The position numbers were made by a program, and so were the translations under genes. The notes beneath the pieces were generated by a model, which worked only from the letters and a program-made list of their open reading frames with translations, was not told the origin of the DNA and did not search any database. A stretch of DNA of 64,000 nt from the NCBI GenBank assembly GCA_907163075.1, contig CAJQTY010000001.1, positions 1,612,001 to 1,676,000 on the forward strand, given 5' to 3'. Shown in pieces: positions 1,417 to 22,966 of this stretch (positions within the stretch are counted from its first letter, which is position 1; each line of letters starts with the position of its first letter). This stretch comes from an uncultured Rhodocyclaceae bacterium (GTDB lineage Bacteria; Pseudomonadota; Gammaproteobacteria; Burkholderiales; Rhodocyclaceae).

Positions 1417-3321
1417 ATGCCCAGCTATCTGCACCCAGGCGTCTACGTCGAAGAGATTCCCAGCGGCGCCAAGCCCATCGAAGGCGTCTCCACCTCGGTG
1501 GCCGCGCTGGTCGGCTACACCACTGAAGGCCCCATCGGCGAAGCCACTCTGGTGCATAGCTGGGATGAGTTCAAGGCCCGTTTCGGCGAGATTCATTCGG
1601 CGACCGACCACCTCGGCCTGGCCGCCTTCAACTTCTTCCTGAACGGCGGGCGCGACGCCTACATCGCGCGCCTGGCGCAGAACGCCGCGGCCTCGACCCT
1701 GCCCGCCGCGAGAATGCCCGGCCGCGCCGCCGGCAGCGCCAGCGCGATCAACGTGCTGGCGATCACGGCGAACAGCGCCGGCGCCTGGGGCAACACTCTG
1801 CGCGTACGGGTCACAGCCAACGACGGCTACCGCTTCGCGCTCGAAGTCAGCCAGGCCGAGGGGGCTGATTCGAGCGTCGTCGAGTCGTTCAGCAACCTGT
1901 CGATGGACAGCTCCGACGCCGGCTACGTGCTCACCGTCGTAAACGGCAGCTCGCGCTACATCAAGGCCGATCTTTCCAGCGATCTGAAAGCCACGCCGGC
2001 GACCTTTTTCAAGAATGCCACCAGCGTCAGCGGCGACCTCAGCGCGCTGGTGTTCACCACCGTGCTGGCCGGCATGACGCTGACGCTCAACGTCGACAAC
2101 CTCGGCGCCAAGAGCGTCACCCTCGGCGCGGCGCCGGGCGGCACCTACGACAGCGGCGGCGAGGTGGCGGCCGAAATCCAGGCCCGTGTGCGCGCCCTCG
2201 GCGACGCCTACGGCGCGTTTACCTGCGCTTTCGCCGGCAATCAGCTCACACTCACGTCCGGCAGCGACAGCGCGGCGTCTTCCGTGCTGGTGCGTCCCGG
2301 CGCGCTGGCGACCCTGCTCAAGCTCGGCAAAGGCGCCGGCGGCACGGAAATCCACGGCACCCAGGACGTCGTACCGGCCCTGATGGCTGTTGCCGAAGCC
2401 CTGACCGGCGGCGCCGACGGCGATGCCCCCGGTGTCGACGACTACGCCGACTTCTTCGCCAAACTGAAAAGGGTGCGCGACGTAAACATCGTCCTCCTGC
2501 CCGGCCAGTTCATGCCGGCGGACGGCACCGGTAACCCGGCCATCGACGCCGCCATCGCCCATTGCGAAGCGATGGCCAGCCGCATGCTGCTGGTCGACCC
2601 GCCGCCGGGTCACGAACTCGACCAGTCGGCGACGGTCAGCGCCCTCGGCCTGCCGACCTCGACCTATACGGCGCTCTACTACCCCTGGGTCAAAATGGCC
2701 AACCCCTTCTACAACCGCGATACCAACCCCAACGTGCCGACCACGCTGAGCGTCGCGCCGTCGCCGTTCGCCGCCGGCGTCTGGGCGCGCACCGACGGCA
2801 CGCGCGGCGTCTGGAAGGCCCCGGCCGGGGTCGAGGCCACGGTGCGCGGCATGGCCGGCCTCGAATTCACCGTCGAGGACGGCGACCAGGACCAGTTGAA
2901 CCCGGAAGGCGTCAATTGCCTGCGCAAGCTGCCCAGCTACGGCGCCGTCGTCTGGGGCACGCGCACGCTGTCGACCAAGGCCAACCCGGAATGGCGCTAC
3001 GTGCCGGTGCGGCGCACCGCCATCTACATCGAGAGCAGCATTTACAACGGCATCCAGTGGGCCGTCTTCGAACCCAACGACCATCGCCTGTGGTCGTCGC
3101 TGCGCGCCAACGTCGGCGCCTTCATGGACGGCCTGTTCCGCGCCGGCGCCTTCCAGGGCCAGAAATCGTCGGATGCCTACTTCGTGCGTTGTGGCCTCGG
3201 CGACACCATGACCCAGGACGACATCGACCGCGGCCAGGTCATCGCCATCGTCGGCTTCGCGCCGCTCAAGCCCGCCGAGTTCGTCATCGTGCGGATTCAG
3301 CAAAAAGTCGGCCAGTCATAA
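1417..3321 (+). CDS. eCIS contractile tail sheath protein
   Basis: This is the sheath subunit of a contractile injection system, the outer cylinder that shortens to drive the inner tube into a target. The 634-residue product opens with PSYLHPGVYVEEIPSG, the N-terminal signature of phage and eCIS sheath proteins (GVYVEE/IPSG), followed by the usual GVSTSVAALVG segment. The C-terminal third carries the conserved sheath core (NCLRKLPSYGAVVWGTRTL, then VPVRRTAIYIESSI and a final Q-x-x-I-x-I-V-G-F-x-P-L-K-P-A-E-F strand). The central 200 or so residues are variable and probably form the surface domain. The start is the ATG at 1417 behind GAGGAGA. It is the only sheath gene here, whereas PVC/Afp clusters carry two or three paralogues. 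It is first of a co-directional run ending at 22966. Confidence 0.95.
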   Translation: MPSYLHPGVYVEEIPSGAKPIEGVSTSVAALVGYTTEGPIGEATLVHSWDEFKARFGEIHSATDHLGLAAFNFFLNGGRDAYIARLAQNAAASTLPAARMPGRAAGSASAINVLAITANSAGAWGNTLRVRVTANDGYRFALEVSQAEGADSSVVESFSNLSMDSSDAGYVLTVVNGSSRYIKADLSSDLKATPATFFKNATSVSGDLSALVFTTVLAGMTLTLNVDNLGAKSVTLGAAPGGTYDSGGEVAAEIQARVRALGDAYGAFTCAFAGNQLTLTSGSDSAASSVLVRPGALATLLKLGKGAGGTEIHGTQDVVPALMAVAEALTGGADGDAPGVDDYADFFAKLKRVRDVNIVLLPGQFMPADGTGNPAIDAAIAHCEAMASRMLLVDPPPGHELDQSATVSALGLPTSTYTALYYPWVKMANPFYNRDTNPNVPTTLSVAPSPFAAGVWARTDGTRGVWKAPAGVEATVRGMAGLEFTVEDGDQDQLNPEGVNCLRKLPSYGAVVWGTRTLSTKANPEWRYVPVRRTAIYIESSIYNGIQWAVFEPNDHRLWSSLRANVGAFMDGLFRAGAFQGQKSSDAYFVRCGLGDTMTQDDIDRGQVIAIVGFAPLKPAEFVIVRIQQKVGQS

Positions 3322-3353
3322 AAGACCAAGGCAATCACTGAGGAGATACTGAA

Positions 3354-3863
3354 ATGGCTGCTCCCATGTTCCCGGTCAACGCCCACCGCCACGACCCCTA
3401 CCGCACCTTCAAGTTCCAGATCCTGATCGACGGCAAGCCGGTCGCCGGACTGAAGAAAATGGGTGCCCTCAAGCGCAAGACCGAGGCCATCAAATGGCGC
3501 ACCGCCGGTGATCCGAGCAAGGAGCGCATCCTGCCCGGCGGCACCAGCTACGAGCCGATTTCCCTCGAACAGGGCCTGTCGCACGACCCGGTGTTCGAAA
3601 GCTGGGCGGCGCTGGTCAACAACATCGAAGGCGACGCCGCCATGTCGCTGAAGAACTTCCGCAAGGATATCGTCATTAACGTGCTCAACCTGCAGGGGCA
3701 GGTCGCCATCTCCTACAAGGTGTTCCGTGCCTGGGTCTCGGATTTCCAGGCGCTGCCCGAACTCGACGCCGGCAGCATGAACGCCGTCGGCATCCAGACG
3801 ATCACCCTGCAGCACGAGGGCTGGCAGCGCGATACCGCGGTCAACGAGCCGACGGAAACCTGA
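3354..3863 (+). CDS. eCIS inner tube protein (T4 gp19/Hcp-like)
   Basis: This 169-residue protein matches the tail-tube family of contractile systems. It has the DPYRTFKFQILIDGKPVAGLKKMGAL opening, the LPGGTSYEPISLEQGLSHDPVFESWA motif and a closing beta strand around ITLQHEGWQRD, all typical of T4 gp19-like tubes. Stacked hexamers of it would form the rigid conduit ejected on contraction. A clear GAGGAG ribosome binding site precedes the ATG at 3354, and it follows the sheath gene by 32 bp, as in most eCIS loci. Only one tube gene is found, so tube and tube-initiator roles are probably shared with the CIS_tube-domain protein at 8274. Confidence 0.93.
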   Translation: MAAPMFPVNAHRHDPYRTFKFQILIDGKPVAGLKKMGALKRKTEAIKWRTAGDPSKERILPGGTSYEPISLEQGLSHDPVFESWAALVNNIEGDAAMSLKNFRKDIVINVLNLQGQVAISYKVFRAWVSDFQALPELDAGSMNAVGIQTITLQHEGWQRDTAVNEPTET

Positions 3864-3871
3864 ACGGCATC

Positions 3872-4663: not shown

Positions 4664-4676
4664 GCGGATAAGCGCC

Positions 4677-5603
4677 ATGGGCCTTCTAAACGACACCATC
4701 CGCGATGCGCGCCGCCCGCTGGGCGTCCACCGGATCGCCGATACGGCGGAGTCAGTCGAGTTGGCGGACGCATTCGAAGCCGCTACGCCGGTTTCCGAGT
4801 TTTCACCGGAAAGCCCGCCGGGCGGCGCGCACAGCATTTCACGATTTCAGAAGGAGGGGCAGGCTCTGCCCCGAGAGGCGTCATTCCAGTCCGGGGGCGG
4901 GATTATTCGTCTTCCGGCTGGCGACCCTTTGTTAGCGGAGATGGACGTCGAAAGGCCGAAGTCATCCGCCACAAATGTCGGATTCAACGATATTTCCGTC
5001 ATGGGCGATAACCGAGAAAGCGAACTGGAAACAGGACATGAAGAACACAGAAGTCCAGGCAAGGTAGCGGCAGCCAACGTGAAATCCGAGTCGAAAACGC
5101 ATCAGTCAGAAGTTTTGTCTGGGTCAATCGAAACGGAGTCGTATCACGAAACGCATCAGTCCAATACTCCAGAAGGCAGTGAACAACGTGTTAGCAGACA
5201 AGGAGAAACGTTCCTGAGCCGGCTGCCGGGTCGGGGCGCCCCTTCTGAAACCTTCAGCGAAAAAACTGCCGCCGCGTCCTGGCGCCCGGCGCACGACGCC
5301 CCGCATGATGCCCGAGCCGCAGTGCGCCACGATGGCGCGGCCACCACAGCCAGCGCGGTCATTGATCGCACGGCGCCGGAACGCGCGCGCGCCACAGCGA
5401 CGCGCACCAGCGCGCCGCCGCTTCACGCCAGCCGCCCGGCGACGGCATCGGCGCGCGCACCCGAAGCCGAGCCGCCCGGCCTGGTCATCGGCCGCATCGA
5501 CGTGCTGGTCGTCGCCGACGGCGCGCCGGCGCAGCCGCGCCCCGCCGCGCCGGCGCTTGCCGAGCGCGGCTTCCTCAGCCGCAACTACCTGAAACGGCTC
5601 TGA
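4677..5603 (+). CDS. Disordered eCIS-locus protein with AT-rich internal segment
   Basis: This 308-residue protein lies between the CxxC baseplate-like gene and the DUF4255 gene. I do not recognise its family. It is low-complexity: an N-terminal 50 residues of ordinary GC-rich code, a middle of about 120 residues rich in Ser, Glu, His and Thr encoded by clearly AT-richer DNA (about 4830-5230), then an Ala/Pro/Arg-rich linker and a compact C terminus (PGLVIGRIDVLVVAD, ending RGFLSRNYLKRL). The middle contains a short direct repeat, ACGCATCAGTC, at two places 54 bp (18 codons) apart, keeping frame. The conserved-looking C-terminal tail may dock onto a partner. No other candidate tape-measure gene was found, so it could be a short or diverged tape measure, or a cargo adaptor; both are guesses. 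Confidence 0.6.
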   Translation: MGLLNDTIRDARRPLGVHRIADTAESVELADAFEAATPVSEFSPESPPGGAHSISRFQKEGQALPREASFQSGGGIIRLPAGDPLLAEMDVERPKSSATNVGFNDISVMGDNRESELETGHEEHRSPGKVAAANVKSESKTHQSEVLSGSIETESYHETHQSNTPEGSEQRVSRQGETFLSRLPGRGAPSETFSEKTAAASWRPAHDAPHDARAAVRHDGAATTASAVIDRTAPERARATATRTSAPPLHASRPATASARAPEAEPPGLVIGRIDVLVVADGAPAQPRPAAPALAERGFLSRNYLKRL

Positions 5604-5604
5604 C

Positions 5605-6633
5605 ATGGCCCTCGCCCTCTCGCCGCTATCGCAGGTCTGCAAAGGCATCCGCAGCTATCTGGACGGCGTGATCAACGCCCCCGAGCGCAGCAAGGTCAGC
5701 GTGCTGCTGGCCACCCCGGCCGAGACCGCGTCGGCCAGCGCCGGCGACAGCAATCACCGCCTCAATCTCTTTTTCAACCGCTTCGAGCCGTCCGGCCTGT
5801 TTCCCGACACGCTGCCCGGCGAAACCGGCTGGATTCGCACCTACTGCCTGGTCACCCCGTTCGCGGCCGAGGAGGACAGCGTCGGCGCCGGCGAAAACGA
5901 CCTCAAGCTGATCGGCGAAGTGCTGCGCATCTTTCACGAAAAGCCGGTGCTGCAACTGCGTGTCGACGGCGAGGATTACCACTTGCAGATCATCTTCCAG
6001 CCGCTCGGCGTCGAGCAGCTCAACCAGTTGTGGTCCACGCAGGGCGACACCATCTACCGGCCTTCGCTGCTCTACGAAATCTCCCTGGCGCCGGTCGTGC
6101 CGGCGAGAAAGGCCGTCGCCGCACCGCTGGCCGGCGGCTTCGGGCTCGAGGTCCGGGCCACGCTGGAGAGGCAGGACGGGCAGGAGGCGAGCATCGCCGG
6201 CCGCCTGCCGGAAGTGCCGGTGATGGTCCCGGCCATCGCGCGCGAAGACTGGGCGCCGGCCGTCGCCTTCGTGCATGCCGGCGTCTGCGCGTTCAGCTTC
6301 AGCTTCGCGCTCGGTAGCCCGGCGCTGGCCGCCTTCGTGCCGCGCGTGTGGCTCGCCGGCAAGCCCGGTGAAATCCTCTCGCTGCACTGGGAACGCTGGG
6401 ACGCGGCGGCCGGCTGGCAGGCCGTGTTGCCGGACGGCAGCGCCCTGATCACCAGTCGCGCCATCGACCCCGACGCGGTGGCGAGCGCCGTCACCGAGGC
6501 GCTCGTCCTGCCCTTCACCGACCGCGTCGGCCAGATGCTCTTCTACGCCGTGCGCACTTACGCCCGCGCCGGCGACGGCGTCGTCCTCAGCGTGCGCTCC
6601 AACCCGCTGTTGATCAGCCTGTACGCGGGCTAG
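5605..6633 (+). CDS. DUF4255/Pvc16-like tail terminator (cap) protein
   Basis: The first 185 or so residues match the DUF4255 (Pvc16 N-terminal) domain: an opening LSPLSQVCKGIRSYLDG, the VSVLLATP strand, then NLFFNRFEPSG, the GWIRTYCLVTPF strand and a GENDLKLIGEVLRIFHEKPVL helix. In the PVC particle this family caps the distal end of the tube and sheath. The C-terminal 150 residues (about 190-342) form a second beta-rich domain. It starts 1 bp after the previous stop codon and ends just before the AAA+ ATPase gene; cap and ATPase genes are usually adjacent in eCIS loci. No unusual features. Confidence 0.88.
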   Translation: MALALSPLSQVCKGIRSYLDGVINAPERSKVSVLLATPAETASASAGDSNHRLNLFFNRFEPSGLFPDTLPGETGWIRTYCLVTPFAAEEDSVGAGENDLKLIGEVLRIFHEKPVLQLRVDGEDYHLQIIFQPLGVEQLNQLWSTQGDTIYRPSLLYEISLAPVVPARKAVAAPLAGGFGLEVRATLERQDGQEASIAGRLPEVPVMVPAIAREDWAPAVAFVHAGVCAFSFSFALGSPALAAFVPRVWLAGKPGEILSLHWERWDAAAGWQAVLPDGSALITSRAIDPDAVASAVTEALVLPFTDRVGQMLFYAVRTYARAGDGVVLSVRSNPLLISLYAG

Positions 6634-6638
6634 CCCGG

Positions 6639-8018
6639 ATGAACGCGCCGCTCGCCAAGCATGCCGCCCTGCCCGCGCTCGACGCCCTCGGCAGCGAATG
6701 GCAGCGCCTCGACTTCCTGGTCTGGTGCCTGTCGCGCAGCCGTCAGGGCGAAGCCGTCGGCGAGGCCGAGATCACCCGCCTGCGCGAGCTGCAAAATAGC
6801 GTCGATGCCGTGCGCGCCGTTGGCGGCGCCTGGGAAACCCTGCTCGGCTTCCACCTGTCGCCGATCGACTACGACATCCTGGCCTGCGCCCTGGCGCCGG
6901 AACTTGAGCCGCGCCTCGGCTGGGCCTTCCAGAACCTGCAGGCCGGGAGCGCCCAGCCGTGGGCCACGCGCGCGCTGATCCAGGAACTGCTGGCGCTCGA
7001 CGCGACGCAGGCCGAGGACTTGCGGCGCGCCCTCGAACCGGCTGCCGCCCTGTTGCGCCACCGCCTGCTACGCCTCGACCAGGACGGCCCGTACCGGCCG
7101 ATCACCCCGGAACCCTGGCTGCTGGCTCGCTTGACTGGCCGCCCGCTCGATCTGCCGCCGCCGCCCGGCGCCACGCCGGTCGACCTGGCGGCGTCGTGGG
7201 ACGACCTGGTGCTGCCCGCCGGCCGTCTGGCGATGCTGCGCGAGTTCATGCTCTGGATCGACCAGCGCGATACCGTCGTCGGCCGCTGGGGCGGGCAGAA
7301 GGTCGGCGGCCCGGTGGCCCTGTTCTCCGGCCCGTCCGGCACCGGCAAGACCTTCGCCGCCGGGGTCATCGCCCAGGCCCTCGGCTGGCGCCTCTATCGC
7401 GTCGATCTCGGCCGCCTGGTCAGCAAGTACGTCGGCGAGACCGAGGAAAACCTCAATCGTCTGTTCGACGCCGCGCACGGCCAGCCGATGGTCCTCCAGT
7501 TTGACGAAGCCGACGCGCTGTTCGCCAAGCGCGGCGCCGTCAAGGAGGCGCGCGACCGCTACGCCAACATGGAAGTCAGCCACCTGCTGACGCGCATCGA
7601 AATGCACGACGGCCCGTGCATCCTCACCACCAACCTGCGCAAACAGCTCGATTCGGCCTTTACCCGGCGCTTCCAGCTGGTCGTCGAGTTTCCGCGCCCG
7701 GACGCCATGGCCCGCGCCGAACTCTGGCGCCGCCTGCTGCCGCCGCGCGCACCGCTGCACCCGGCAGTGGACATGGGTTTTCTCGGCAACGCCGTGGCCC
7801 TGACCGGCGGCAGCATCCGCAACGCCGCGCTGCACGCCGCCTACCTGGCGGCCGGCGCCGGTGGCGCGGGTGACGCGGCAACACCAACGGCCATCGGCCT
7901 GCCGCATATCGCCCACGCCGTCTGGCGCGAACTGGCCAAGGAAGGGCGCGAACTGGCGGCGCAGGACCTCGGCCTGCTCGCCGCCCACCTGCCGCGCGAG
8001 GTACGCGATGAAGACTGA
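6639..8018 (+). CDS. AAA+ ATPase of the eCIS (Pvc15/Afp15-like)
   Basis: This 459-residue AAA+ protein has an N-terminal helical domain of about 190 residues and one ATPase module. Walker A is GPSGTGKT near residues 231-238 and Walker B is MVLQFDEADALF near 284-295; an arginine-finger-like segment follows (RKQLDSAFTRRFQ, near 340). The family is present in nearly all eCIS loci, where it is thought to act in particle assembly or cargo loading rather than as a structural part. It is cytoplasmic, with no signal peptide. Its 3' end overlaps the next small gene by 11 bp, which suggests coupled translation. Confidence 0.92.
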   Translation: MNAPLAKHAALPALDALGSEWQRLDFLVWCLSRSRQGEAVGEAEITRLRELQNSVDAVRAVGGAWETLLGFHLSPIDYDILACALAPELEPRLGWAFQNLQAGSAQPWATRALIQELLALDATQAEDLRRALEPAAALLRHRLLRLDQDGPYRPITPEPWLLARLTGRPLDLPPPPGATPVDLAASWDDLVLPAGRLAMLREFMLWIDQRDTVVGRWGGQKVGGPVALFSGPSGTGKTFAAGVIAQALGWRLYRVDLGRLVSKYVGETEENLNRLFDAAHGQPMVLQFDEADALFAKRGAVKEARDRYANMEVSHLLTRIEMHDGPCILTTNLRKQLDSAFTRRFQLVVEFPRPDAMARAELWRRLLPPRAPLHPAVDMGFLGNAVALTGGSIRNAALHAAYLAAGAGGAGDAATPTAIGLPHIAHAVWRELAKEGRELAAQDLGLLAAHLPREVRDED

Positions 8019-8271
8019 AATCGGCCAGCTGAAGCTGCGCCTGCCGTCCACCTTCGCCGAGCGCGCGCCGGCCATCGGCCGCCTGGTCGGCGAAGCGCTG
8101 GCGAGGCTGGCGCGCCAGCCGGATCTGCCGCGCGGGCAACTGGCCCGGCTTGGCGTCGGTCCCGTGCAGGTCGATGCGCGCGACTCCGACCGCGTCGTCG
8201 CCGGGCAGATTGCCGGCGCCATCGCACGTTCCATGGCGGCGGCGCTCGCCGCCCCGGCCCGGGAGAACTGA
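8008..8271 (+). CDS. Small hypothetical eCIS-locus protein
   Basis: This is an 87-residue protein starting at ATG 8008 inside the end of the ATPase gene. It is basic and helical (MKTEIGQLKLRLPSTFAERA, then a long Arg/Leu-rich helix and a small C-terminal IAGAIARSMAAAL segment). The pattern resembles the short helical proteins encoded beside baseplate hub genes in other contractile-tail loci. The overlap with the ATPase gene and the 2-bp gap to the next gene argue that it is a genuine operon member. Function unknown. Confidence 0.65.
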   Translation: MKTEIGQLKLRLPSTFAERAPAIGRLVGEALARLARQPDLPRGQLARLGVGPVQVDARDSDRVVAGQIAGAIARSMAAALAAPAREN

Positions 8272-8273
8272 AC

Positions 8274-8921
8274 ATGCTATCGCCGATCAAGGGTTTTCTC
8301 GTCGAATACGCGCTCGCCTTGCCACCGCTGGTGCTCGCTTTCGACTTCAATCCGCAGACGCTGACGCGCAACCGCCGCGTGACGCTGACGCTCGGTTCGA
8401 CGCCGGCGACGCGCGGCGGCTACGATTTCGCGCTGCCCACCGAGACGGCGCGCGTGGCGCAGGGCGTGGCGGTGGAGCCGGAGAGCTTCGACGTCGAAAT
8501 CCTGCTCGACGCCACCGACCGCATGAACGACGGCGACGCGCTGGCGCGTACTTTGGGCATCCAGCCCGAACTCGACACCCTGCGCAGCATGGTCGAGCCG
8601 AAAACGCAGGGGCCGGGCGGCCTGCAGGTGCTGGCCAGCCTCGGCTTTGGCGGCGCGCGCGCCTTCCAGCGTTCGCAGACCGCCTCGGTGCTGCTGCTGG
8701 TCTGGGGGCCGCACGTCCTGCCGGTGTTCCTGAAAGGCATCAACGTCAGCGAATCCGCTCACCTGCCGACGCTGGTGCCGTACCGCGCGACGGTCGGCCT
8801 CAGCCTGCAGGTGATCGAAGGCAACAACCCCTTCTACGCCGTCGAAAAGGTGCGCCAGGTCGTCGGCGCCGCGCTCAACACCGGTCGCACGGCGGTATCG
8901 GCCAGCGGAGGACTGTTCTGA
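8274..8921 (+). CDS. CIS tube-domain hub adaptor (N-terminal half of Pvc7-like)
   Basis: This 215-residue protein matches the CIS_tube N-terminal domain of Pvc7/Afp7 (opening MLSPIKGFLVEYA, then LAFDFNPQTLTRNRR and a long beta-strand series ending ATVGLSLQVIEGNNPFY). In PVC-type particles this domain sits at the interface of tube and central hub and is fused to a LysM domain. Here the LysM-like part is a separate gene whose ATG overlaps this stop codon (TGATG at 8919-8923). The break is clean, with good codon use on both sides, so it reads as a true gene split rather than a frameshift. Confidence 0.78.
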   Translation: MLSPIKGFLVEYALALPPLVLAFDFNPQTLTRNRRVTLTLGSTPATRGGYDFALPTETARVAQGVAVEPESFDVEILLDATDRMNDGDALARTLGIQPELDTLRSMVEPKTQGPGGLQVLASLGFGGARAFQRSQTASVLLLVWGPHVLPVFLKGINVSESAHLPTLVPYRATVGLSLQVIEGNNPFYAVEKVRQVVGAALNTGRTAVSASGGLF

Positions 8922-11604: not shown

Positions 11605-11614
11605 GGATACGGAC

Positions 11615-13029: not shown

Positions 13030-13064
13030 ACGCCGACGACGCGACGTGCGGAAGGGAGAGCGGC

Positions 13065-15977
13065 ATGAACGATCTCACGCGCTGGAATCGGGCCGGGCTG
13101 TCGCGCTTCGACTATGTCGACGGCAACGCGGCGGTCTTCCTGGAACGCCTGCGCGGCGGCCTGGCCGCGCGTTTTCCGGCGTGGAAACAGGTGCTCGCGG
13201 TGTTTCCCGGCGACGAGCCGGAAGAAGCCCGCAAGTCGCGCCTGGAGGCGCTCTACGCCAGCGACCCGGACGACATGCTGTGGCAGCTCACGCGCCAGTT
13301 CGCGCGCGCCTGCCATGTGCTCGGCGCGCACGTCGATGCCTACGCCAACGAGTCGTATATCGGCACCGCCAGTCAGTGGGAAAACCTGCGCCGGCTGGTC
13401 GCGCTGCTCGACTACGCGCCGCTGCCGCCAGCCTCGGCGTTTACGCCGCTGGCGCTGTTCCTCAAGACGGCCAAGGCCGGTACCGTGGCCGCCGGCCTGC
13501 AGCTCAAATACAGCCCGGCGGCCGGCGCGCCGCTGGTTTTCGAAACCCTGGCCGGCCTCGAAGCCGATGCGGCGTACAACACCCTGTATGCCCGCGACCA
13601 TCTGCGCAACCCGCAGGCGCTAAGCGGCACCACGCTGGTCGTCGGCGAAAAGCTCGACAAGCTGAAGAGCGGCGAGCCGCTGGTGCTCGAAGACGAACGC
13701 GACGGGCAACTGTCGGCGCACCTGGTGCAGGGCGTCCTGCTCGCCGATGAACTCACCACCGTCACCATCACGCCGGCGATTCCGGGCGGTTTCGCCAGGG
13801 GCTGGACGCGCGTGCACACCAGCCCGAAGGAGAAGCTGACGCCGCTCGATCCGGCCACGCGCGGCGTCGAAACCGTTGGCCACAGCCTGCAGCTGGCGGT
13901 CCCGTCCACCGATCTGGCGGCGGGCGACATCGTCGTCATCCGCTCGGTCGACGACAAGCCGTATTTCCGCCGCATCAAGACCGTGCATGAAGACCGCCTG
14001 GTCTTCTACCGCGACATCGGCCAGCTCACGCTGGCCGGCGCCACGGTCGCGCGCCCGGTCACGGTGCCGCTTTCCGATCTCGCCAATCCGCCGCTGCGGC
14101 GCGTGATCAATGCCGACGGGACGGTGGTCGACGTGGTCTACGCGGCCGGCGACTGGTCGCGCCTGGCCGGCGAGTGGCTGGCGCATATCCGCAAGCTTGC
14201 CGATCGCGAATACCTGCCGGCGTACTACTGCCTGCATGCCAAGTACGTGCCGGTGACCAAGGATGCGGCGCGCGTCGCCGCCGACGAGCGTCCCGGCTAC
14301 ACCGCCCTGACGCTGACCTGGCACGCGGACACCGACGGCGTGCCGGGTGCCGCCGACTTCAGGCTGAACAATCCGCAGACGCTGCTGGCGCCGCCGCCCA
14401 CCGCCGGACCGTGGACCGTGGACAGCTTCCTCAACAAGAGCGCCGACGGCCACCTGGTCAGGGGGCTGGTCACCGGCCTGTGCAAGCAGGCCGCGGCGGG
14501 CGACCTAGCGGTGGTGGTCAAAGGCGCGCAGATGGCCTGGGCCAGGCTGGCCGCCGTCGAGCTCGACATGGAGCGCGAGGAAGCCACCCTCAGCGCCGAA
14601 AATTACTGGCAGCAGCGCGGCGGCGGCCCCTTCTTTCTCAGCCGCACGCGGGTCTATGGCCATTTCCTGAAAGAGGTGCGCCTGCTCGGCTGGCAGGACA
14701 ACGGCAGCGCCCTGTCCGGCACCCGTGTCGTGCCGGAAAGCCTGCCCGCCGGCTTGAAGACGGGCCGCGCGCTGATCGTCGACAACGGCCGCGCGGTGCT
14801 CGAAACCCGTCTCGCCGATTTCCATCCAGGCGGGGCCTGGCTCGATCTCGCCGATCGCCTGCCGCCGGGAACGACGGCCGGCAATCTGAAAATCTACGCC
14901 AACGTCGTCTATGCCGGCCACGGCGAAACGCGCCCGCAGCGCGTGCTTGGCAGCGGCGACGGTACGCGCAGCAGCCAGCGCTTCACGCTCGAGTCGACCG
15001 GCCTGTCCTTCGTCGCCGACGCGGCGATGAGCGCCGGCGTGCGCGCCGCACTCGACGTCGCGGTGGCCGGCGAAACCTGGGTCCAGGTATCGACGCTCAA
15101 GGATTCGGGGCCGAGCGACGCGCATTACCAGGTGCGCATCGACCAGGACGGCAATGCCGAAATCCAGTTCGGCGACGGCCGCCACGGCCGCCGCCTGCCG
15201 AGCGGCGGCAACAATATCCGGGTCGTTTTCCGCGAGGGCGCCGGGATTGCCGGCAATTTGCCGCCCGGCAACCTGGTCAAGCTGCTCAAGCCGCACTCGC
15301 TGCTTGACTCGGTGGCGCAGCCGATCGAAAGCAGCGGCGGCGCCGACCGCGAAAGCAACGCCGACCTGCGCGAGAACGCACCGGCGACGCTGCTGACGCT
15401 CGATCGCGCGATCTCGCTGGAGGATTTCTCGCAACTGGCGCGCGGCCACGCCAGCGTCTGGCAGGCGCGCGCCTTCCGTCTGGCCCCCGGCCTTGGCCAG
15501 CGCGAACGCCTGGAAGTGGTGGTCATGGCCGCCGGCGGCGGCACGCCCTCGGCGGCGCTCAAGGCCGAATTGCAGGCCTACCTGCTGGCGCGCGCGCAGC
15601 CCGGCGTCGCCCTCGCCATCAGCGATTACCAGCGCCTGAGTTTCAGGCTGAACGTCAGCATCCGCGTGCGCACGGCGGCCTTCGACAAGCAGACGGTCAA
15701 GGACGCCGTGCTGGCCGCGCTGCAGGCGGCGTTCACCGAGCAGGTCCGGCAGCTCGGCCAGGCGCTCTATCGCGGCGAGATCTACAAGGTGGTCGATGCC
15801 GTGGCCGGCGTTGAAAACAGCGACTGCAGCATCGTTCTCGATGCCGCGACGCAGGCGCGCCTGGCGAAAGTGGTCGACAGCGGCGGCAAGCTGCTGCTGG
15901 TGCAGCCGGCCGACAGCCAGTGCCTGGTGTTCGATGGCCGCAGTTTCGCCGCCGCCGTCGAGGAGTACGAGCTATGA
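13065..15977 (+). CDS. Baseplate J-like wedge protein 2 (Pvc12-like)
   Basis: This 970-residue wedge protein is the larger of the two J-like proteins of the eCIS baseplate. The N terminus (FPAWKQVLAVFPGDEPEEARKSRLEALYASDPDDMLWQLTRQFARACHVLG) is the helical connector region; long beta-rich insertions follow. The C-terminal part holds the Baseplate_J core: YQVRIDQDGNAEIQFGDGRHGRRLPSGGNNIRVVFREGAG, then APATLLTLDRAISLEDFSQLARGH and a last domain around YRGEIYKVVDAVAGVENSDC. The ATG at 13065 is used because the equivalent start at 12808 is cut off by REP sequences. It ends with an ATGA overlap into the gpI-like gene. Confidence 0.88.
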   Translation: MNDLTRWNRAGLSRFDYVDGNAAVFLERLRGGLAARFPAWKQVLAVFPGDEPEEARKSRLEALYASDPDDMLWQLTRQFARACHVLGAHVDAYANESYIGTASQWENLRRLVALLDYAPLPPASAFTPLALFLKTAKAGTVAAGLQLKYSPAAGAPLVFETLAGLEADAAYNTLYARDHLRNPQALSGTTLVVGEKLDKLKSGEPLVLEDERDGQLSAHLVQGVLLADELTTVTITPAIPGGFARGWTRVHTSPKEKLTPLDPATRGVETVGHSLQLAVPSTDLAAGDIVVIRSVDDKPYFRRIKTVHEDRLVFYRDIGQLTLAGATVARPVTVPLSDLANPPLRRVINADGTVVDVVYAAGDWSRLAGEWLAHIRKLADREYLPAYYCLHAKYVPVTKDAARVAADERPGYTALTLTWHADTDGVPGAADFRLNNPQTLLAPPPTAGPWTVDSFLNKSADGHLVRGLVTGLCKQAAAGDLAVVVKGAQMAWARLAAVELDMEREEATLSAENYWQQRGGGPFFLSRTRVYGHFLKEVRLLGWQDNGSALSGTRVVPESLPAGLKTGRALIVDNGRAVLETRLADFHPGGAWLDLADRLPPGTTAGNLKIYANVVYAGHGETRPQRVLGSGDGTRSSQRFTLESTGLSFVADAAMSAGVRAALDVAVAGETWVQVSTLKDSGPSDAHYQVRIDQDGNAEIQFGDGRHGRRLPSGGNNIRVVFREGAGIAGNLPPGNLVKLLKPHSLLDSVAQPIESSGGADRESNADLRENAPATLLTLDRAISLEDFSQLARGHASVWQARAFRLAPGLGQRERLEVVVMAAGGGTPSAALKAELQAYLLARAQPGVALAISDYQRLSFRLNVSIRVRTAAFDKQTVKDAVLAALQAAFTEQVRQLGQALYRGEIYKVVDAVAGVENSDCSIVLDAATQARLAKVVDSGGKLLLVQPADSQCLVFDGRSFAAAVEEYEL

Positions 15978-17620
15978 GCCCCAACTATGGCGAACTGCTG
16001 CGCCAATGGCTGCCCGCCGTCTGGCGCGAACGCGACGCCGATGCCGGCAGTGGCGACCTGGGCGATCTGCTGGCGGTTTACGGCGAGCTGCTCGATGCCT
16101 TCCACGGCACCGTCGCGCAGCGCCTTTACGACAGTTTCCCGGATCGTGACGCCGACGGCCGCCATTGCCAGGACTGGCTGTTGCCGTATATCGCGCAGTT
16201 GCTCGACGTGCGTCTGGTGTCGCCGGACGAGGCCGGGCGCCGTGCCGAACTGGCCGACGCCGTCGCCTGGCGCCAGCGCAAGGGAACGCGCGTCAGCATC
16301 GAAGCCATCGCCGAGGCGGTGGGTCAGTTCGAGGTCGAAATCCAGGAAGGCTGGAAGCGCGTGGCGATCACCCCGCGCGTCGATCGTCCACTGTTGCCGG
16401 AAGCCGCCTACGGCGAAGAAGACATCGCGGCGAATGCCGGCCCGGCAGCGCGCGCACGCCACCCCAGCCTGCCCGCCGCGACGCTCGACCTGCGCTATTG
16501 CTCACGCGCCGTGCGCTGCGATCCGGCCAACCCGGCCGCGCACCAGACGACCTTCGCCGGCGAAAGCCTGAGCTGGCGCCAGGTCAACCGGCACGGTCTG
16601 CCCTGTGCGCCGGACAGCTACCAGGATGTTTCGCGGCGTAGCGTCGATCTGCGCACGCCGGACTGGCGGCGCGGACATTTCCATCCGCGCCGCGTGCTGC
16701 TCCATCTGCCGCCGCCCGAAGGCCATTGTTCGGCGCGCGCGCCGGCGCTCAACTGGAGCGAGGTGCTCGCCCTCGGCGGCCACCACGACGGCCCGCACCT
16801 GCGCATCCGCACCACCAGCACGACCTGGAACGGCCTGAGCTTGCCGCTGATCAGCTACACCGGCCTCGGCGCGGTGCCGGTCAAGATGCGCGGCGTGGTG
16901 ACCTTCACCGCGGCCGCCGTTTACCGCTTCGAGAACCTGTGGCTCGATAACCGGCTGCAGATCGATGCCGGCGCCGCCCAGTTGCGCAACTGCGCGGCGC
17001 GCCAGTTGCGCGTGACGACCGCCGAGCGCGACGTTCCGGTGATCGAGGCGCGCGCCTGCCTGTTCAAGAAGGTCGAAGCCGCGCGCGGCCTCGTTCGCCT
17101 GGAATACGCCACGGTCCTCGATACGCTGCTGGCCGAACGCCTGGAAGCCAGCGACAGCATCCTGCTGCCGCCGCTGCGCAAGGACACGGTCGACAACGAC
17201 GTGCCGGCGGCCGGCTGCATCCGCTTCAGCCGCCTCTTCCACCTCCCGGAGAAGCCGGTGCCCAGCGATCCGCCCGACCCCGACGCGCCGCTGCTCGACA
17301 ACGATCCGCTGTGGCGCAGCCAGGGCCGGCGTTCGCCCCTGCGCTGCTTCAACGCCACGTGCACCAGCGCGCTGCCGCTGTTCTGGTCGCTGACCTTCGG
17401 CGAGCCGGGCTGCGGCGTGCTGCACCCGGACAGCGCCGTAGTCTTCCAGTCCGGCGCCGAGGATAACGGCGAACTCGGCGCCTGCCACGACTATCGGCAC
17501 GTGCTGCGTCAGCGCGCGGTGCTAGAAAAGCTCCAGGAATTTTTGCCGGTGGGCATGGAGGCCGTCCTGGTGGCCGATCCCAGCCTCACCTGCGCGCCGC
17601 CGAAAGTCACCAAAACCTGA
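15974..17620 (+). CDS. Phage tail protein I-like wedge/fibre connector
   Basis: The start at ATG 15974 overlaps the previous stop codon. Residues 1-150 match the gpI-type tail proteins (LLRQWLPAVWRERDADAG near the start, LLAVYGELLDAFHGTVAQRLYDSFPDRD, then CQDWLLPYIAQLLDVRLVSPDEAGRRAELADAVAWRQRKGT). The remaining 400 residues are a beta-rich, Cys-containing extension that could reach the cell surface or hold fibres. In eCIS loci this gene usually follows the second J gene, as here. The length of 548 residues is much longer than phage gpI (about 180), in line with other eCIS homologues. Confidence 0.8.
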   Translation: MSPNYGELLRQWLPAVWRERDADAGSGDLGDLLAVYGELLDAFHGTVAQRLYDSFPDRDADGRHCQDWLLPYIAQLLDVRLVSPDEAGRRAELADAVAWRQRKGTRVSIEAIAEAVGQFEVEIQEGWKRVAITPRVDRPLLPEAAYGEEDIAANAGPAARARHPSLPAATLDLRYCSRAVRCDPANPAAHQTTFAGESLSWRQVNRHGLPCAPDSYQDVSRRSVDLRTPDWRRGHFHPRRVLLHLPPPEGHCSARAPALNWSEVLALGGHHDGPHLRIRTTSTTWNGLSLPLISYTGLGAVPVKMRGVVTFTAAAVYRFENLWLDNRLQIDAGAAQLRNCAARQLRVTTAERDVPVIEARACLFKKVEAARGLVRLEYATVLDTLLAERLEASDSILLPPLRKDTVDNDVPAAGCIRFSRLFHLPEKPVPSDPPDPDAPLLDNDPLWRSQGRRSPLRCFNATCTSALPLFWSLTFGEPGCGVLHPDSAVVFQSGAEDNGELGACHDYRHVLRQRAVLEKLQEFLPVGMEAVLVADPSLTCAPPKVTKT

Positions 17621-17632
17621 ACGGGGAATGCC

Positions 17633-20602
17633 ATGAAAACCCAGATATCCCGCGATTCCTTCCAGCCTGGACAACGCTATTCCGGCGTCTATCTGCAACA
17701 GGGGCGCATGATCCTGGATGCCGACTGGAACGAACTCACCGAGATCGACAAGGCGCGCCTGGTCGATGCCCTGCGCGACGCCATCGCCGGCGGCGCGCCG
17801 CGCGTCGGCGGCCTGCGCGTCTACGCGGAGCCGCCGGGCTCGACCAACATCCTCGTCGCACCCGGCGCGCTCTACGTCGACGGCGTTCCGGCGCGGCTCG
17901 ATGCGCCGGCTCCGCTGGCGGTCAACGCCCAGCCCGAGTACCCGATCGCCGCCGACTACAGCGGCCAGAACCTGTTCCTTTACGCCGACGTCTGGGAACG
18001 CAGCGTTTCCGCCCTCGAACAGCCGGCGCTCATGGATGCCGCGCTGCACGGGGCGGATACCGCGACGCGCAGCCAGACCATGCTGCAGGTTAAGTGGTGC
18101 GCCAACGCCACCGACCCGCTCGACGAGAACGCCAACCCGTCGCTCGGCACGGCGCCGCTGCTCCTCAGGCTGCGCCTGATCGCCAGCAGCGGTGACGCCT
18201 GCGACCCCTGCGCCAGCCAGGTGCGCGTCGACGAGCGCATCGGCAACTACCTGTTCCGCGTCGAGGTTCACGACTACGACCCCGGCAGCCAGTGGCTGAC
18301 GCTCAAGTGGTCGCGCGACAACGGCGCCGAGGCCTGCGCGGTGGCTGCCATGCCGGCCGGTTTCAACCACGGCGACTGGGTCTGGGAATATTTCGACAGG
18401 GACACCGAGCGTCTGCTCGGCAACCACTTCGCGCCCAACCCGCTCAAGCTGCGCGGACTGATCAAGGAAAGCTGCGTCACGCCGAGCGGCGCCAGCGAGC
18501 CGAAAACCTGGGTCCGGCAATGGGACGGCTACCTGCGGATCAAGCTCGACAGCGGCGAGCTGAGCGGCCGCGACCGTGGCGTCGCGCTCTTCGCCGGTAC
18601 GCTCGACGACCCGGCGCAGGGCCGCGCCAGCCTCGACGGCGGCGTGCTCAAGCTCAACCTTGAACACCTGGAGCTTGAACTGGCGTGCAGCGGCCAGCGC
18701 TTCGTGCCGGGCGACTACTGGCTGGCCGCCGTGCGCGAGTCGGTCAATGTCGCCGGCCAGTACGTGCTGCCGGCCATGCCGGATCTCTCGGTTCCGGCCC
18801 AGGGAGAAGCGCCGCGCGGTGTGCGCCATCACTACCTGCTGCTCGGCGAACTGCGGGTGGACAGGAGGCTGGCGGCCACCGACGACGCCTTCAACCGGCG
18901 CATGGCCTTCCCGCCGCTGACCGACATTCACGCCACCGACGTCGGTTTTATCGATCGCTGCGCCGGCCTTTTCGCGGGCGCGCAGAACGTGCAGCAGGCG
19001 CTCGACAACCTCTGCGCCATCGGCGCCGAGGACATTGCCTACCTACTGCCCAACTGCGGGGTCTACGAGGGAATCTCGGTCAAGGACCACCTGCAAGCCG
19101 TGCTCGACCCGGACAGCGATGGCCGGCTGACGGTCAAGGCCGCGCTCGACACGCTGCTCTGCCGGCTCGACGCGGCGAGCGTGCCGCTCGACAAGAGCGA
19201 TGCCGCGCTGTGCAGCGACCTGCAGGTGCCCGAGGTGGTCAGCGTGCAGGATGCGCTCGGTATTCTCTGCGCCAGGTCCGGCGGCGGCTGCGCGGTGGCC
19301 GCCAGTTCGCCGGAACACCTCGGCGTCCTGCTCGCGGACTTCGCCAACTCCGCCACCGCCACCGATCTGTGGATCTGCCTCAAGGCCGGCAACTATCCGC
19401 TGGCCGACGTGCCGGTGATCGCCAACAAGCGCAGTCTGCGCATCTGCGGCGAAGGCCCGGAGTCGGTCACCATTCCCTTCAGCGGCAGCACGCTGAGCAT
19501 CGAAGCCGACGAAGTGATCCTGGAGAACCTGGCGCTTAGCTTCGCCAGGAGCGACGGCCAGCTGGCGATCGCGGCCAGTACCGCCGCCGTTCGCGGCTGC
19601 CAGTTCAGCCGCACCACGCGCGCCGCCAACGGGCCGGAAATGATCCGCGTCGGCGGCCCCGGCAACGGCGTTTGCGCCCTGGCCTGGCGCGACAGCACGC
19701 TGTACGCGCAGATCCGCACGGTGTCCGGCACCGGCGATCGCTGGGCCGGCCCGCAGGTGGTCGGCACTGCGGCGGTGAGCGAGGCGCTGCTGGCGCTCGG
19801 GCGCGAGGATGTGCTCGCCGACAAGCTGGCCTACGACGCGGCGCTGAACAGGGCGGTGACGTCGATCCTGGCGATGAACCCGGCACAGCGCACCACGTGG
19901 CGGGTCAACCTGCAGCAGTTGCCGGTGGACATCGTCCGCGCGCCTGGCGCTCGTGCCGCCAAGCCGGGGGTCAATGCCGCCGTCGAAGCGCTCGGCAAGG
20001 AAAGGGTCAGCCGCCGGGAAGTCGCCAGCGCGGTCGAGAGCCTCGTCGCGCAGTGGGTCGTTTACAGCCCGGACTATGCGCTGCGCCTGGTCAACCACAA
20101 AGTCGGCGGCGTCATCGAGGGCTGCCAGGTCGATGGCTGGCTGCTCTTCGGCAATGACATCGACGGCTACAGCCTGCCGCGTTCCGGCGGCCTCGGCGGC
20201 GTCAGCGTTGAGGGCGACGTCATCCGGAGCGGCGGCGAGGATCTGCAGTTGCGCGGCAACTACTTCGCCGCCATCAAGTCCAACCTGCCGCGGGATGCGC
20301 TCAACGCCGACGCGGCGCTGGTCATGCAGGTTGCCGGCCACACCCGGCTGTTCCTGGTAAACAATAGCCTGGGCGACGAGGAGAACTCCTTTACCGCCGC
20401 CAGCTTCGTCGGCCAGGGCAATACCTGGGACTATCGCGCGCAAAGGAATACCTGGCTGGGCTACGTGATCGCCGATCGTGCCAGTTTCACCGGTAATCTG
20501 CTGGGCGATTTCAACGACAATGCCAACATCGCCTGCAGCGCGCGTTCGTTCATGCTCGCCAACGCCGGCAACGTGCTGGTGGAGTTGTTTTCGACACGCT
20601 GA
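17633..20602 (+). CDS. Large DUF6519-type tail protein with beta-helix C terminus
   Basis: This 989-residue protein begins MKTQISRDSFQPGQRYSGVYLQQGRMILDADWNELTEI, a signature of DUF6519 proteins found next to eCIS and phage-like baseplates. Residues 1-480 are a mixed domain region with several Cys residues (CDPCAS near 190). From about 560 to the end, repeated short strands (NKRSLRICGEGPESVTIPFSG, LSIEADEVILENLAL and later VSVEGDVIRSGGEDLQLRGNYF) indicate a right-handed parallel beta-helix, typical of spikes or fibres that contact a surface. It is a good candidate for the target-binding or surface-exposed part of the particle, but no receptor can be inferred. Confidence 0.75.
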   Translation: MKTQISRDSFQPGQRYSGVYLQQGRMILDADWNELTEIDKARLVDALRDAIAGGAPRVGGLRVYAEPPGSTNILVAPGALYVDGVPARLDAPAPLAVNAQPEYPIAADYSGQNLFLYADVWERSVSALEQPALMDAALHGADTATRSQTMLQVKWCANATDPLDENANPSLGTAPLLLRLRLIASSGDACDPCASQVRVDERIGNYLFRVEVHDYDPGSQWLTLKWSRDNGAEACAVAAMPAGFNHGDWVWEYFDRDTERLLGNHFAPNPLKLRGLIKESCVTPSGASEPKTWVRQWDGYLRIKLDSGELSGRDRGVALFAGTLDDPAQGRASLDGGVLKLNLEHLELELACSGQRFVPGDYWLAAVRESVNVAGQYVLPAMPDLSVPAQGEAPRGVRHHYLLLGELRVDRRLAATDDAFNRRMAFPPLTDIHATDVGFIDRCAGLFAGAQNVQQALDNLCAIGAEDIAYLLPNCGVYEGISVKDHLQAVLDPDSDGRLTVKAALDTLLCRLDAASVPLDKSDAALCSDLQVPEVVSVQDALGILCARSGGGCAVAASSPEHLGVLLADFANSATATDLWICLKAGNYPLADVPVIANKRSLRICGEGPESVTIPFSGSTLSIEADEVILENLALSFARSDGQLAIAASTAAVRGCQFSRTTRAANGPEMIRVGGPGNGVCALAWRDSTLYAQIRTVSGTGDRWAGPQVVGTAAVSEALLALGREDVLADKLAYDAALNRAVTSILAMNPAQRTTWRVNLQQLPVDIVRAPGARAAKPGVNAAVEALGKERVSRREVASAVESLVAQWVVYSPDYALRLVNHKVGGVIEGCQVDGWLLFGNDIDGYSLPRSGGLGGVSVEGDVIRSGGEDLQLRGNYFAAIKSNLPRDALNADAALVMQVAGHTRLFLVNNSLGDEENSFTAASFVGQGNTWDYRAQRNTWLGYVIADRASFTGNLLGDFNDNANIACSARSFMLANAGNVLVELFSTR

Positions 20603-20675
20603 ATTTTTGGCAACGAGGGTCGTCGGGCCGGCCACCGCGGTCTGGCGAACCCGAGCCTGGATCAGGAGGTCCGCC

Positions 20676-22403: not shown

Positions 22404-22966
22404 TGGTGATGATGATGGACGCCGTCAGCCAGCGCGTGGCGGAGAAGCTTGCCGCCTTCGATAGCAAACAGGATCCGGCGCTGCTCCACGCGGCGCTGGA
22501 GATGATCGAGGCCGCCGAATGCGCGGCCGCCGACGACGCCTCGGCGCGCCCGGCGATGCTCGGGCGCTGGCTCGGCGTCCTGGCCGCGCTCGAACGGAAT
22601 ATCGACGCGCAGTGGGATGAGCAACAGTTGCCGACGAGCGGAGCGCCGCTGCCGCCGACGCATGGCGTGGTCTACCCGAGCGGCGAGACGGACCCGGAAA
22701 CGATCGCCGACGCGCTCGCGCGGGCGAGCTACGAGCAGGCGCTGCAAGCCAGCCGCGACTACGCCCGGCACTACGGAATCCAGTTCCAGCTCCGGCGCAT
22801 CGACGATGATGCAATGCTCGCCGTGGCACGGCTGCTCGCCGAGAGGTATTCGGCAGCGCCCGCGGATCGGCAGGAATTCGCGGATCTGCTGGCAGCCTCT
22901 GCGCTGAGCGAGCCGCGCCAGGCGCGTCTTCGCGCCTTCCTGCCCGGTGCCGCGCCGGCGCGATGA
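22394..22966 (+). CDS. Hypothetical protein downstream of DUF4157 gene
   Basis: This 190-residue helical, acidic protein is of unknown function. It overlaps the DUF4157 gene by 10 bp; the exact start is unclear because several ATG/GTG codons occur in the first nine (MSVMVMMMDAV). Sequence features are Ala- and Glu-rich helices (LHAALEMIEAAECAAAD) and a RDYARHYGIQFQLRRIDDDAMLAVARLLAERY stretch; no membrane span is visible. The overlap suggests a dedicated partner of the cargo, such as a chaperone, loader or immunity protein. That is inference from position only. Confidence 0.6.
   Translation: MSVMVMMMDAVSQRVAEKLAAFDSKQDPALLHAALEMIEAAECAAADDASARPAMLGRWLGVLAALERNIDAQWDEQQLPTSGAPLPPTHGVVYPSGETDPETIADALARASYEQALQASRDYARHYGIQFQLRRIDDDAMLAVARLLAERYSAAPADRQEFADLLAASALSEPRQARLRAFLPGAAPAR

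What the first reader, a model, noticed from the sequence alone, without database searches (positions are those of the whole stretch)
1417..22966. A compact eCIS with single sheath/tube, split hub and spike, and no recognised tape measure
Seen directly: one sheath, one tube, cap, ATPase, hub, spike, gp25, two J proteins, gpI and DUF4157, but no head or lysis genes. Known: PVC/Afp particles usually carry two or more sheath paralogues, a fused hub-spike (Pvc8), a PAAR tip (Pvc10) and a long tape measure (Pvc14). Here the Pvc7 and Pvc8 equivalents are each split in two, no PAAR gene is seen, and no long helical tape-measure candidate was recognised. This layout could represent a distinct subtype with a different way of setting particle length and of anchoring.
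Basis: partly seen in the sequence, partly recalled or inferred. Interest (0 to 1): 0.8.

Follow-up and report, generated by a model that had tools for sequence, protein, structure and literature searches.

The report
Common phage-tail-like protein injector cluster
This is a complete gene cluster for a phage-tail-like protein injector of a widespread type; its supposedly missing tip and tail fibre are present in other forms, and an unannotated, apparently floppy protein sits where a length-setting protein could be expected.

Summary
In detail: window 1417-22966 is a headless contractile injection (eCIS) cluster with one sheath, one tube, split Pvc7 and hub/spike, no PAAR gene and no recognised tape measure. 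The layout is not unusual. In a tree of 112 sheath C-termini the window sits in a 46-row clade (97/98); across 94 annotated loci, hub and spike are separate in 53 of the 55 where both were found. The 'missing' parts have substitutes. The spike gpV ends in a P2-type HxH apex; of 50 loci, 40 have HxH without a PAAR-like gene beside gpV, 9 the reverse, none both, one neither. DUF6519 is a published tail-fibre anchor (eBAP5). A missing tape measure is already noted for Streptomyces CIS. New here: the 308-aa ORF 4677-5603 belongs to an unannotated family filling the slot between a gp26-like chaperone and the cap in 75 of 76 loci, with conserved ends and a disordered middle (224-796 aa in all). It is my best candidate for a hub-cap tether or length control, but indels between sister species argue against an exact ruler. 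Identity of the system is strong; the ruler role is a guess (about 0.2).

The parts
1417..3321 (+). contractile sheath (single)
   Evidence: PF17482 3e-14, PF04984 7e-14; only sheath in genome; PDB sheath 8bky 1e-88
3354..3863 (+). inner tube (single)
   Evidence: PF06841 6e-36; only one in genome
3872..4663 (+). T4 gp26-like hub-assembly chaperone with two CxxC pairs and DUF6760-like C-terminus
   Evidence: PF12322 5e-4 and PF20546 3e-4, both under their cut-offs; AF2 pLDDT 96.9; BFVD phage baseplate hub assembly protein 1.7e-13, TM about 0.7; no PDB match at E 0.001
4677..5603 (+). disordered two-ended protein (308 aa), conserved unannotated family; candidate tether or length-control protein
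   Evidence: no Pfam, NCBIfam, PHROG, PADLOC or PDB match; same slot in 75 of 76 loci; C-terminal motif 66 of 74 vs 1.2% in shuffles; AF2 ends ordered, middle not
5605..6633 (+). cap / tail terminator (Pvc16, DUF4255)
   Evidence: PF14065 3e-17
6639..8018 (+). AAA+ ATPase (Pvc15-type)
   Evidence: PF00004 2e-24, WHD 6e-10
8008..8271 (+). small 87-aa protein directly upstream of the tube initiator; positional candidate for the spike plug (Pvc6/Alg6)
   Evidence: nothing above cut-off in Pfam, NCBIfam, PHROGs or PADLOC; no convincing PDB match; profile found in 26 of 37 loci of the clade, the other 11 have a 69-88 aa ORF in the slot
8274..8921 (+). tube initiator (N-terminal half of Pvc7)
   Evidence: CIS_tube PF19266 E 0.0037, under cut-off; position
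8921..9211 (+). LysM / gpX protein (C-terminal half of Pvc7)
   Evidence: PF05489 1.7e-4, just under cut-off; phrog_7145 7e-13
9218..10372 (+). baseplate hub (gpD; N-terminal half of Pvc8)
   Evidence: VgrG_rel positions 4-346, 1e-7, under cut-off
10372..11190 (+). central spike (gpV; C-terminal half of Pvc8) with HxH apex
   Evidence: PF04717 3e-22; apex aligned with phage P2 gpV
11227..11604 (+). gp25/gpW wedge protein
   Evidence: PF04965 2e-13
11615..12811 (+). first J-type wedge protein (398 aa)
   Evidence: TIGR02243 3e-19, under cut-off; no Pfam match
13065..15977 (+). second J-type wedge protein (970 aa)
   Evidence: PF04865 5e-15; TIGR02243 2e-47
15974..17620 (+). gpI wedge protein
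   Evidence: PF09684 2e-8
17633..20602 (+). DUF6519 (eBAP5) tail fibre
   Evidence: PF20129 2e-20; eBAP5 definition PMC12923769
20676..22403 (+). DUF4157 (eCIS core) candidate cargo with peptidoglycan-binding domain
   Evidence: PF13699 1e-29, PF01471 1e-15; only one in genome
22394..22966 (+). 190-aa protein of unknown role, overlaps the end of the DUF4157 gene
   Evidence: only DUF6207 at E 0.14 in Pfam, nothing in PADLOC; no match in G280 at E 0.01

Best explanation
A complete, horizontally acquired eCIS cluster of the lineage-II kind. Shown by sequence: one sheath and tube, a cap, an AAA+ ATPase, a P2-like baseplate (separate hub gpD and spike gpV, gp25, two J proteins, gpI), a DUF6519 tail fibre and one DUF4157 candidate cargo gene. 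Inferred working: the gp26-like chaperone helps build the hub; tube and sheath grow from the baseplate and are closed by the cap; the AAA+ protein helps load the DUF4157 cargo; the fibre binds the target; the sheath contracts and drives in the tube behind a spike whose three HxH motifs hold a metal ion and so replace a PAAR tip. The 308-aa disordered protein with two conserved ends most likely links two parts of the particle, perhaps hub and cap inside the growing tube, and so may take part in length control (this last step is the weakest).
For: Family matches for the parts; single sheath, tube and DUF4157 protein in the genome; same gene order in relatives, including same-family G280 and same-order L023; sheath tree; tip swap 40/0/9/1 of 50 loci, with DUF4280 in 7 and PAAR in 5 of the 9 alternative tip proteins and a PDB PAAR spike tip at 6e-5; P2 gpV ends in a similar HxH motif, and apex iron in the P2, phi92 and R2-pyocin spikes is stated in PMC10715212 (passages); eBAP5 paper. 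For the disordered protein: slot filled in 75 of 76 loci, conserved ends, dN/dS 0.23-0.61 in 10 pairs, position next to a gp26-like protein; T4 gp29 is thought to enter the baseplate unfolded (PMC3004832, passages).
Against: Nothing shows that the particle is made. Assembly, metal, cargo loading and target are inferred from families. Against a ruler role: the disordered protein is not predicted helical, has no detected tape-measure homologue, and its length differs by 7-18 aa between close relatives with nearly identical tubes; the solved diffocin tape measure is a helical trimer (PMC11329794, passages). In each locus it was taken as the longest frame of the gap, so occupancy alone is weak and the motif (66 of 74) is the real test. 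Hub, initiator, first J, LysM and gp26-like assignments rest on sub-threshold family scores plus position, fold or conservation; the gp26-like fold has no PDB match.
Confidence: 0.85

Rival explanations
1. The 308-aa protein is not a ruler but a cargo or loading adaptor: one end binds the AAA+ ATPase or cap, the other cargo, and particle length is set by something else.
For: It lies directly upstream of the cap and AAA+ genes; close relatives show length indels, which suits a flexible tether better than a ruler; Streptomyces CIS particles are uniform in length without an Afp14-type gene.
Against: Its slot is filled in 75 of 76 loci, whereas DUF4157 genes move about (between AAA+ and tube initiator in 0 of 37 loci of the window's clade and 8 of 23 others).
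Confidence: 0.35
2. The particle length is set by a DUF4157, Tme- or Sle1-like effector acting as tape measure.
For: Tme of S. davawensis and Sle1 of S. lividans are described as related to phage tape-measure proteins (PMC11126660; PMC13277306; passages of both).
Against: No DUF4157 gene stands between AAA+ and tube initiator in any of 37 loci of the window's clade; the window has no long unassigned gene; in AlgoCIS a mutant lacking both cargoes still made particles (PMC8894135, passages). The helical content of the window's 575-aa DUF4157 protein was not tested.
Confidence: 0.12
3. A defective prophage tail or an R-type bacteriocin rather than an eCIS.
For: The baseplate half has the P2 gene order V-W-J-I-fibre and a P2-type spike apex.
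Against: Cap Pvc16_N, Pvc15-type AAA+, DUF4157 and DUF6519 are eCIS marks; no head or lysis family among the cluster's matches; the set is conserved across phyla.
Confidence: 0.03
4. A genuinely new eCIS subtype with its own anchoring and length control.
For: It differs from PVC/Afp in the listed points and I know of no characterised member of its 46-row clade.
Against: The clade has tens of members with the same genes in the same order where contigs are long enough, lies beside a sister clade sharing the core, and its fibre class is published.
Confidence: 0.15

Closest known systems
Streptomyces davawensis CIS group (Tme-type; PMC11126660)
   Same: Sheath clade spread over Proteobacteria, Chloroflexota and Actinobacteria; spike, tube initiator, receptor-binding-like and peptidoglycan-binding proteins named (section 6 and passages)
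   Different: It has a Tme effector upstream of the baseplate genes and a PAAR-like tip; the window has neither, and has an HxH spike and an 87-aa gene there. I did not fetch S. davawensis itself, so common clade membership is untested
Streptomyces coelicolor CIS (CISSc, subtype IId; PMC10066040, PMC12237407)
   Same: Single sheath, no Afp14-type tape measure, no PAAR in S. coelicolor
   Different: CISSc has two tube homologues and no tail fibre; loci L044 and L047, taken as IId-type, fall outside the window's clade and have gpD and gpV in one frame
AlgoCIS and tCIS (PMC8894135, PMC8894136)
   Same: Single sheath; the LysM part of Alg7 was found cleaved from its barrel in the particle, which the split Pvc7 resembles
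   Different: VgrG-like Cis8/Alg8 spike, PAAR-like tip, resolved plug; AlgoCIS is subtype Ib
PVC / Afp
   Same: Same functional parts: cap, AAA+, initiator, hub-spike, gp25, J
   Different: Several sheaths and tubes, fused Pvc8, PAAR Pvc10, Pvc14 (from the finding and recall)
Phage P2 tail
   Same: Separate spike gpV with HxH apex; order V-W-J-I-fibre
   Different: Phage with head; AAA+ and DUF4157 not part of it (recalled)
Phage T4 gp26/gp29
   Same: gp26-like fold of 3872-4663; gp29 tape measure thought to enter unfolded
   Different: No homologue of the 308-aa protein was found among phage families

Membership tests
eCIS (headless contractile injection system with cargo) | sheath, tube, baseplate, cap DUF4255 and AAA+ in one cluster | tested here: met
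eCIS (headless contractile injection system with cargo) | eCIS core domain DUF4157 | tested here: met
   PF13699 1e-29
eCIS (headless contractile injection system with cargo) | assembled contractile particle | not testable with these tools
   needs electron microscopy
PVC/Afp-type eCIS | two or more sheath paralogues | tested here: not met
   one sheath in genome
PVC/Afp-type eCIS | fused hub-spike Pvc8 | tested here: not met
   separate gpD and gpV
PVC/Afp-type eCIS | PAAR tip Pvc10 | tested here: not met
   PF05488 not found in genome
PVC/Afp-type eCIS | Pvc14/Afp14 tape measure | tested here: inconclusive
   no tape-measure family matched, but no Pvc14 profile was run
Subtype IId (CISSc-type) | sheath groups with IId loci | tested here: not met
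   L044 and L047 lie outside the 92-row clade; they were labelled IId from taxonomy and layout, not by a published tree
Tme-type group of S. davawensis | large DUF4157 gene upstream of baseplate genes | tested here: not met
   AAA+ to initiator gap 271 bp, holding only the 87-aa ORF
eBAP5 fibre class | N-terminal DUF6519 | tested here: met
   PF20129 2e-20, residues 1-158
P2 gpV-type spike apex | HxH motif near the C-terminal apex | tested here: met
P2 gpV-type spike apex | iron held by six histidines of the trimer | not testable with these tools
   needs protein
Phage tape-measure protein (for the 308-aa protein) | long helical coiled coil | tested here: not met
   AF2 middle pLDDT about 48, only two short helices at the ends
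Phage tape-measure protein (for the 308-aa protein) | protein length proportional to tube length | not testable with these tools
   I found no particle lengths for loci that carry it
T4 gp26 hub chaperone (3872-4663) | same fold | tested here: met
   BFVD 1.7e-13, TM about 0.7; PF12322 under cut-off
Alg6/Pvc6 plug (8008-8271) | sequence or profile match to plug | tested here: inconclusive
   profile search of PDB sequences found none; position fits

The most novel reading that the evidence does not exclude
Lineage-II eCIS set their length with a disordered, extended ruler rather than a helical tape measure: a protein anchored by a short N-terminal helix and by a C-terminal strand-helix motif, encoded between a gp26-like hub chaperone and the cap. 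It would work like the disordered rulers of flagella and injectisomes (recalled analogy). 308 aa fully extended is 105-111 nm, close to the 110-120 nm given for eCIS (PMC8213781, passage). The cyanobacterial homologue of 796 aa, which holds near-identical repeats at an offset of 53 aa, then predicts far longer particles.
Probability: 0.2. Interest if true: 0.8.

Novelty: new member of a known kind. Interest (0 to 1): 0.48.

Why it matters
How contractile injection systems without an Afp14-type gene reach a uniform length is unexplained; the gap is noted in print for Streptomyces (PMC12237407, section 6). An unannotated protein family that fills the slot next to a gp26-like hub chaperone in 75 of 76 loci gives that question a single gene to test in environmental bacteria. 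The HxH and PAAR-like tips, never found together in 50 loci, also show that 'no PAAR' does not mean 'no tip', which helps to recognise complete clusters.

Tried and rejected
Tape measure by homology: Pfam, NCBIfam, PHROGs, PADLOC and PDB searches of the 308-aa protein found nothing; scanning 34 family members one by one gave only single weak hits. The profile of the 87-aa family gave only designed proteins and ribosomal protein eS19 at E 0.05-1 in the PDB. The gp26-like model found no PDB fold at E 0.001. A repeat search in the window's 308-aa protein and six long homologues found repeats above shuffles only in L124. In the same call the spread of lengths (CV) was 0.24 for the disordered family, 0.02 tube, 0.05 initiator, 0.12 chaperone, 0.15 gpV, but 0.49 for gp25, probably because stop-to-stop frames run on in some loci; I therefore do not use that comparison. 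Relating protein length to particle length failed: the lengths I found (Streptomyces, Roseiflexus, Calidithermus/Deinococcus) are of IId systems, and the IId-type loci read here (L043, L044, L047) gave no hit in the motif scan; that scan also missed five homologues found later by position (L023, L024, L045, L046, L048), so absence from IId is not firmly shown. AF2 of complexes could not be run.

Choices and dropped rows: of 20 stretches fetched (L023-L030) went into the annotation; L031-L042 were left out, though L031-L040 entered the tree. Of 6 plasmid loci, L043 was left out. In the tree, sheath matches under 150 profile positions were dropped, so L060, L086 and L111 are not in it; the 47 'other' loci are by exclusion and include these three. 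Profiles were grown from window proteins, so distant parts may be undercounted. L106 was left out of the 74-sequence statistics because of N runs. Alignment A4 used 34 of 75 sequences. The HxH pattern was stricter and missed five spikes (L054, L056, L067, L070, L094); one search uses HxH in the last 70 residues. PAAR-like genes were looked for only between gpV and gp25, except in the window's genome.
Full report
What is there. The region 1417-22966 is a + strand run of 18 open frames. In order: sheath, tube, gp26-like chaperone, a 308-aa disordered protein, cap, AAA+ ATPase, an 87-aa protein, tube initiator, LysM/gpX, hub gpD, spike gpV, gp25, two J-type wedge proteins, gpI, DUF6519 fibre, DUF4157 candidate cargo and a 190-aa protein. 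The largest gap inside the run, 12812-13064, carries two copies of a repeat with inverted arms. The genome has one sheath, one PF06841 tube, one DUF4157 protein and no PAAR-motif match.

Is the layout unusual? No. I annotated 94 loci with profiles grown from the window's own proteins. Hub and spike are separate frames in 53 of 55 loci where both were found; the two exceptions, L044 (Streptomyces clavuligerus) and L047 (Deinococcus actinosclerus), look like the CISSc/IId kind. Tube initiator and LysM are separate in 61 of 62. In the window's clade 44 of 45 loci have one sheath frame and 45 of 45 one tube; among 47 other loci 44 have one sheath, two none in the stretch held and one three, and 47 have one tube. 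Many contigs end early, so these are counts of what is held. In a tree of 112 sheath C-termini the window lies in a 46-row clade (97/98), mostly Pseudomonadota, sister to a second 46-row clade with cyanobacteria, Chloroflexota, Bacteroidota and a Streptomyces plasmid locus; 20 of 109 inner branches are weak and the second sheaths of the two-sheath clusters have long branches.

How it came here. Of 28 genomes searched in the genus, only the window's own has a close hub; one other has two matches of 24-25% identity. Of 150 family genomes 16 match the tube, the own one included; one, G280, is 90% identical and its cluster is syntenic, with a 318-aa frame in the disordered protein's slot and two DUF4157 frames. 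The cluster has 68.9% G+C against 61.9% in the rest of the window. Horizontal gain is the simplest reading.

The missing tip. In the window's clade 35 of 35 loci with both gpV and gp25 have an HxH near the spike's end, followed by a Gly/Pro-rich stretch, as in phage P2 gpV, which I read for comparison. Of 53 loci with a detected gpV, 42 have HxH in the last 70 residues. Nine of the other 11 have a short gene between gpV and gp25; of these nine, 7 match DUF4280 and 5 match PAAR in Pfam at E up to 1, best 1e-5 and 2e-4, and as a profile they match a phage PAAR spike tip in the PDB at 6e-5. Among the 50 loci with both gpV and gp25 the counts are HxH only 40, PAAR-like only 9, both 0, neither 1 (L102). 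Fisher's test gives 4e-9 overall and 0.002 among the 15 loci outside the window's clade; neither corrects for kinship. In print, the apex iron of the P2, phi92 and R2-pyocin spikes is set beside PAAR metal as a way of sharpening the tip (PMC10715212, passages).

The missing anchor. DUF6519 was defined in 2026 as eBAP5, one of five baseplate-anchoring domains of eCIS tail fibres (PMC12923769, passages and section 7). The window's 989-aa protein has it at residues 1-158. Its C-terminal half reads like a beta-helix by eye; I did not test that.

The missing tape measure. No family search found one, and the literature already notes this for the Streptomyces CIS, whose particles are nevertheless uniform (PMC10066040 passages; PMC12237407 section 6). 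Between the gp26-like protein and the cap, 75 of 76 loci that hold both have a long frame in the slot; the exception, L104, has its cap on the other strand. I took the longest frame of each gap, so the motif is the better test: I[GDE]x[ILV]x[VIL] ending 8-75 residues before the stop is found in 66 of 74, against 1.2% of shuffled sequences; the eight that lack it are L046, L096, L097, L101, L102, L108, L110 and L114. The family runs from 224 to 796 aa, median 320 (74 sequences). The alignment of 34 members shows a conserved start and end and little between. AF2 with these 34 gives a mean pLDDT of 54.8: residues 1-20 and 261-290 and a helix 302-307 stand out, the middle is unordered. dN/dS is 0.23-0.61 in ten pairs, so it is under selection, though weaker than on the neighbouring structural genes in most pairs. 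The neighbouring 263-aa protein folds confidently (pLDDT 96.9) and matches predicted phage baseplate hub assembly proteins of the T4 gp26 kind; T4 gp26 is listed as a hub assembly chaperone and gp29, the T4 tape measure, is thought to enter unfolded (PMC3004832, passages).

How it most likely works. Shown: the parts list and its conservation. Inferred from families: chaperoned hub assembly, tube and sheath growth, capping, cargo loading with the AAA+ protein, fibre binding, contraction, metal-tipped penetration. Guess: the disordered protein spans from hub to cap and limits growth. 308 aa extended is 105-111 nm, near the 110-120 nm given for eCIS (PMC8213781, passage), but length changes of 7-18 aa between near-identical relatives (Litoreibacter 328/313, Halomonas 297/279/286) argue against a precise ruler, and an adaptor or tether role is at least as likely.

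Novelty. The system is a new member of a known kind. I found no description of the disordered family, or of the tip swap within eCIS, in the listings of ten searches of the paper library or in the passages I read; that library lacks most subscription journals, so this is weak evidence. The subtype-naming paper (Chen et al. 2019) was not read; subtype labels here come from citing papers, and the label 'lineage II' for the window itself is my inference.

Noticed in passing
window 12841-13033: Two 52-nt repeat copies (83% alike) with inverted arms between the two J genes; the core pattern occurs 4 times in the genome and the reversed control 0 times. Looks like a REP-type element in the operon.
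   Followed up: partly
L124 (Hormoscilla sp.), about 11361-13748: Longest homologue of the disordered protein (796 aa) with near-identical repeats at an offset of 53 aa, in a locus with three sheath frames.
   Followed up: partly
window 4677-5603: Third-position G+C is 0.69 in this gene against 0.84-0.92 in the other in-frame cluster genes (the DUF4157 row there was out of frame).
   Followed up: no
L069 (SAR324 bacterium): The only locus of the window's clade with two sheath frames, which pair with each other in the tree: a local duplication.
   Followed up: no
window 22394-22966: 190-aa gene overlapping the end of the DUF4157 gene, without a convincing match; could be a partner of the cargo.
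   Followed up: partly
window 59496-63899: 1467-aa protein with cadherin-like, bacterial Ig and RTX repeats, with an outer-membrane efflux protein at 54737-56650: looks like an RTX adhesin with a type I secretion part.
   Followed up: no
window 47030-50644: 1204-aa CHASE/PAS/GGDEF/EAL protein.
   Followed up: no
window 26060-26401: Frame starting like an IS110-type transposase (recalled likeness, untested), shortly downstream of the cluster.
   Followed up: no
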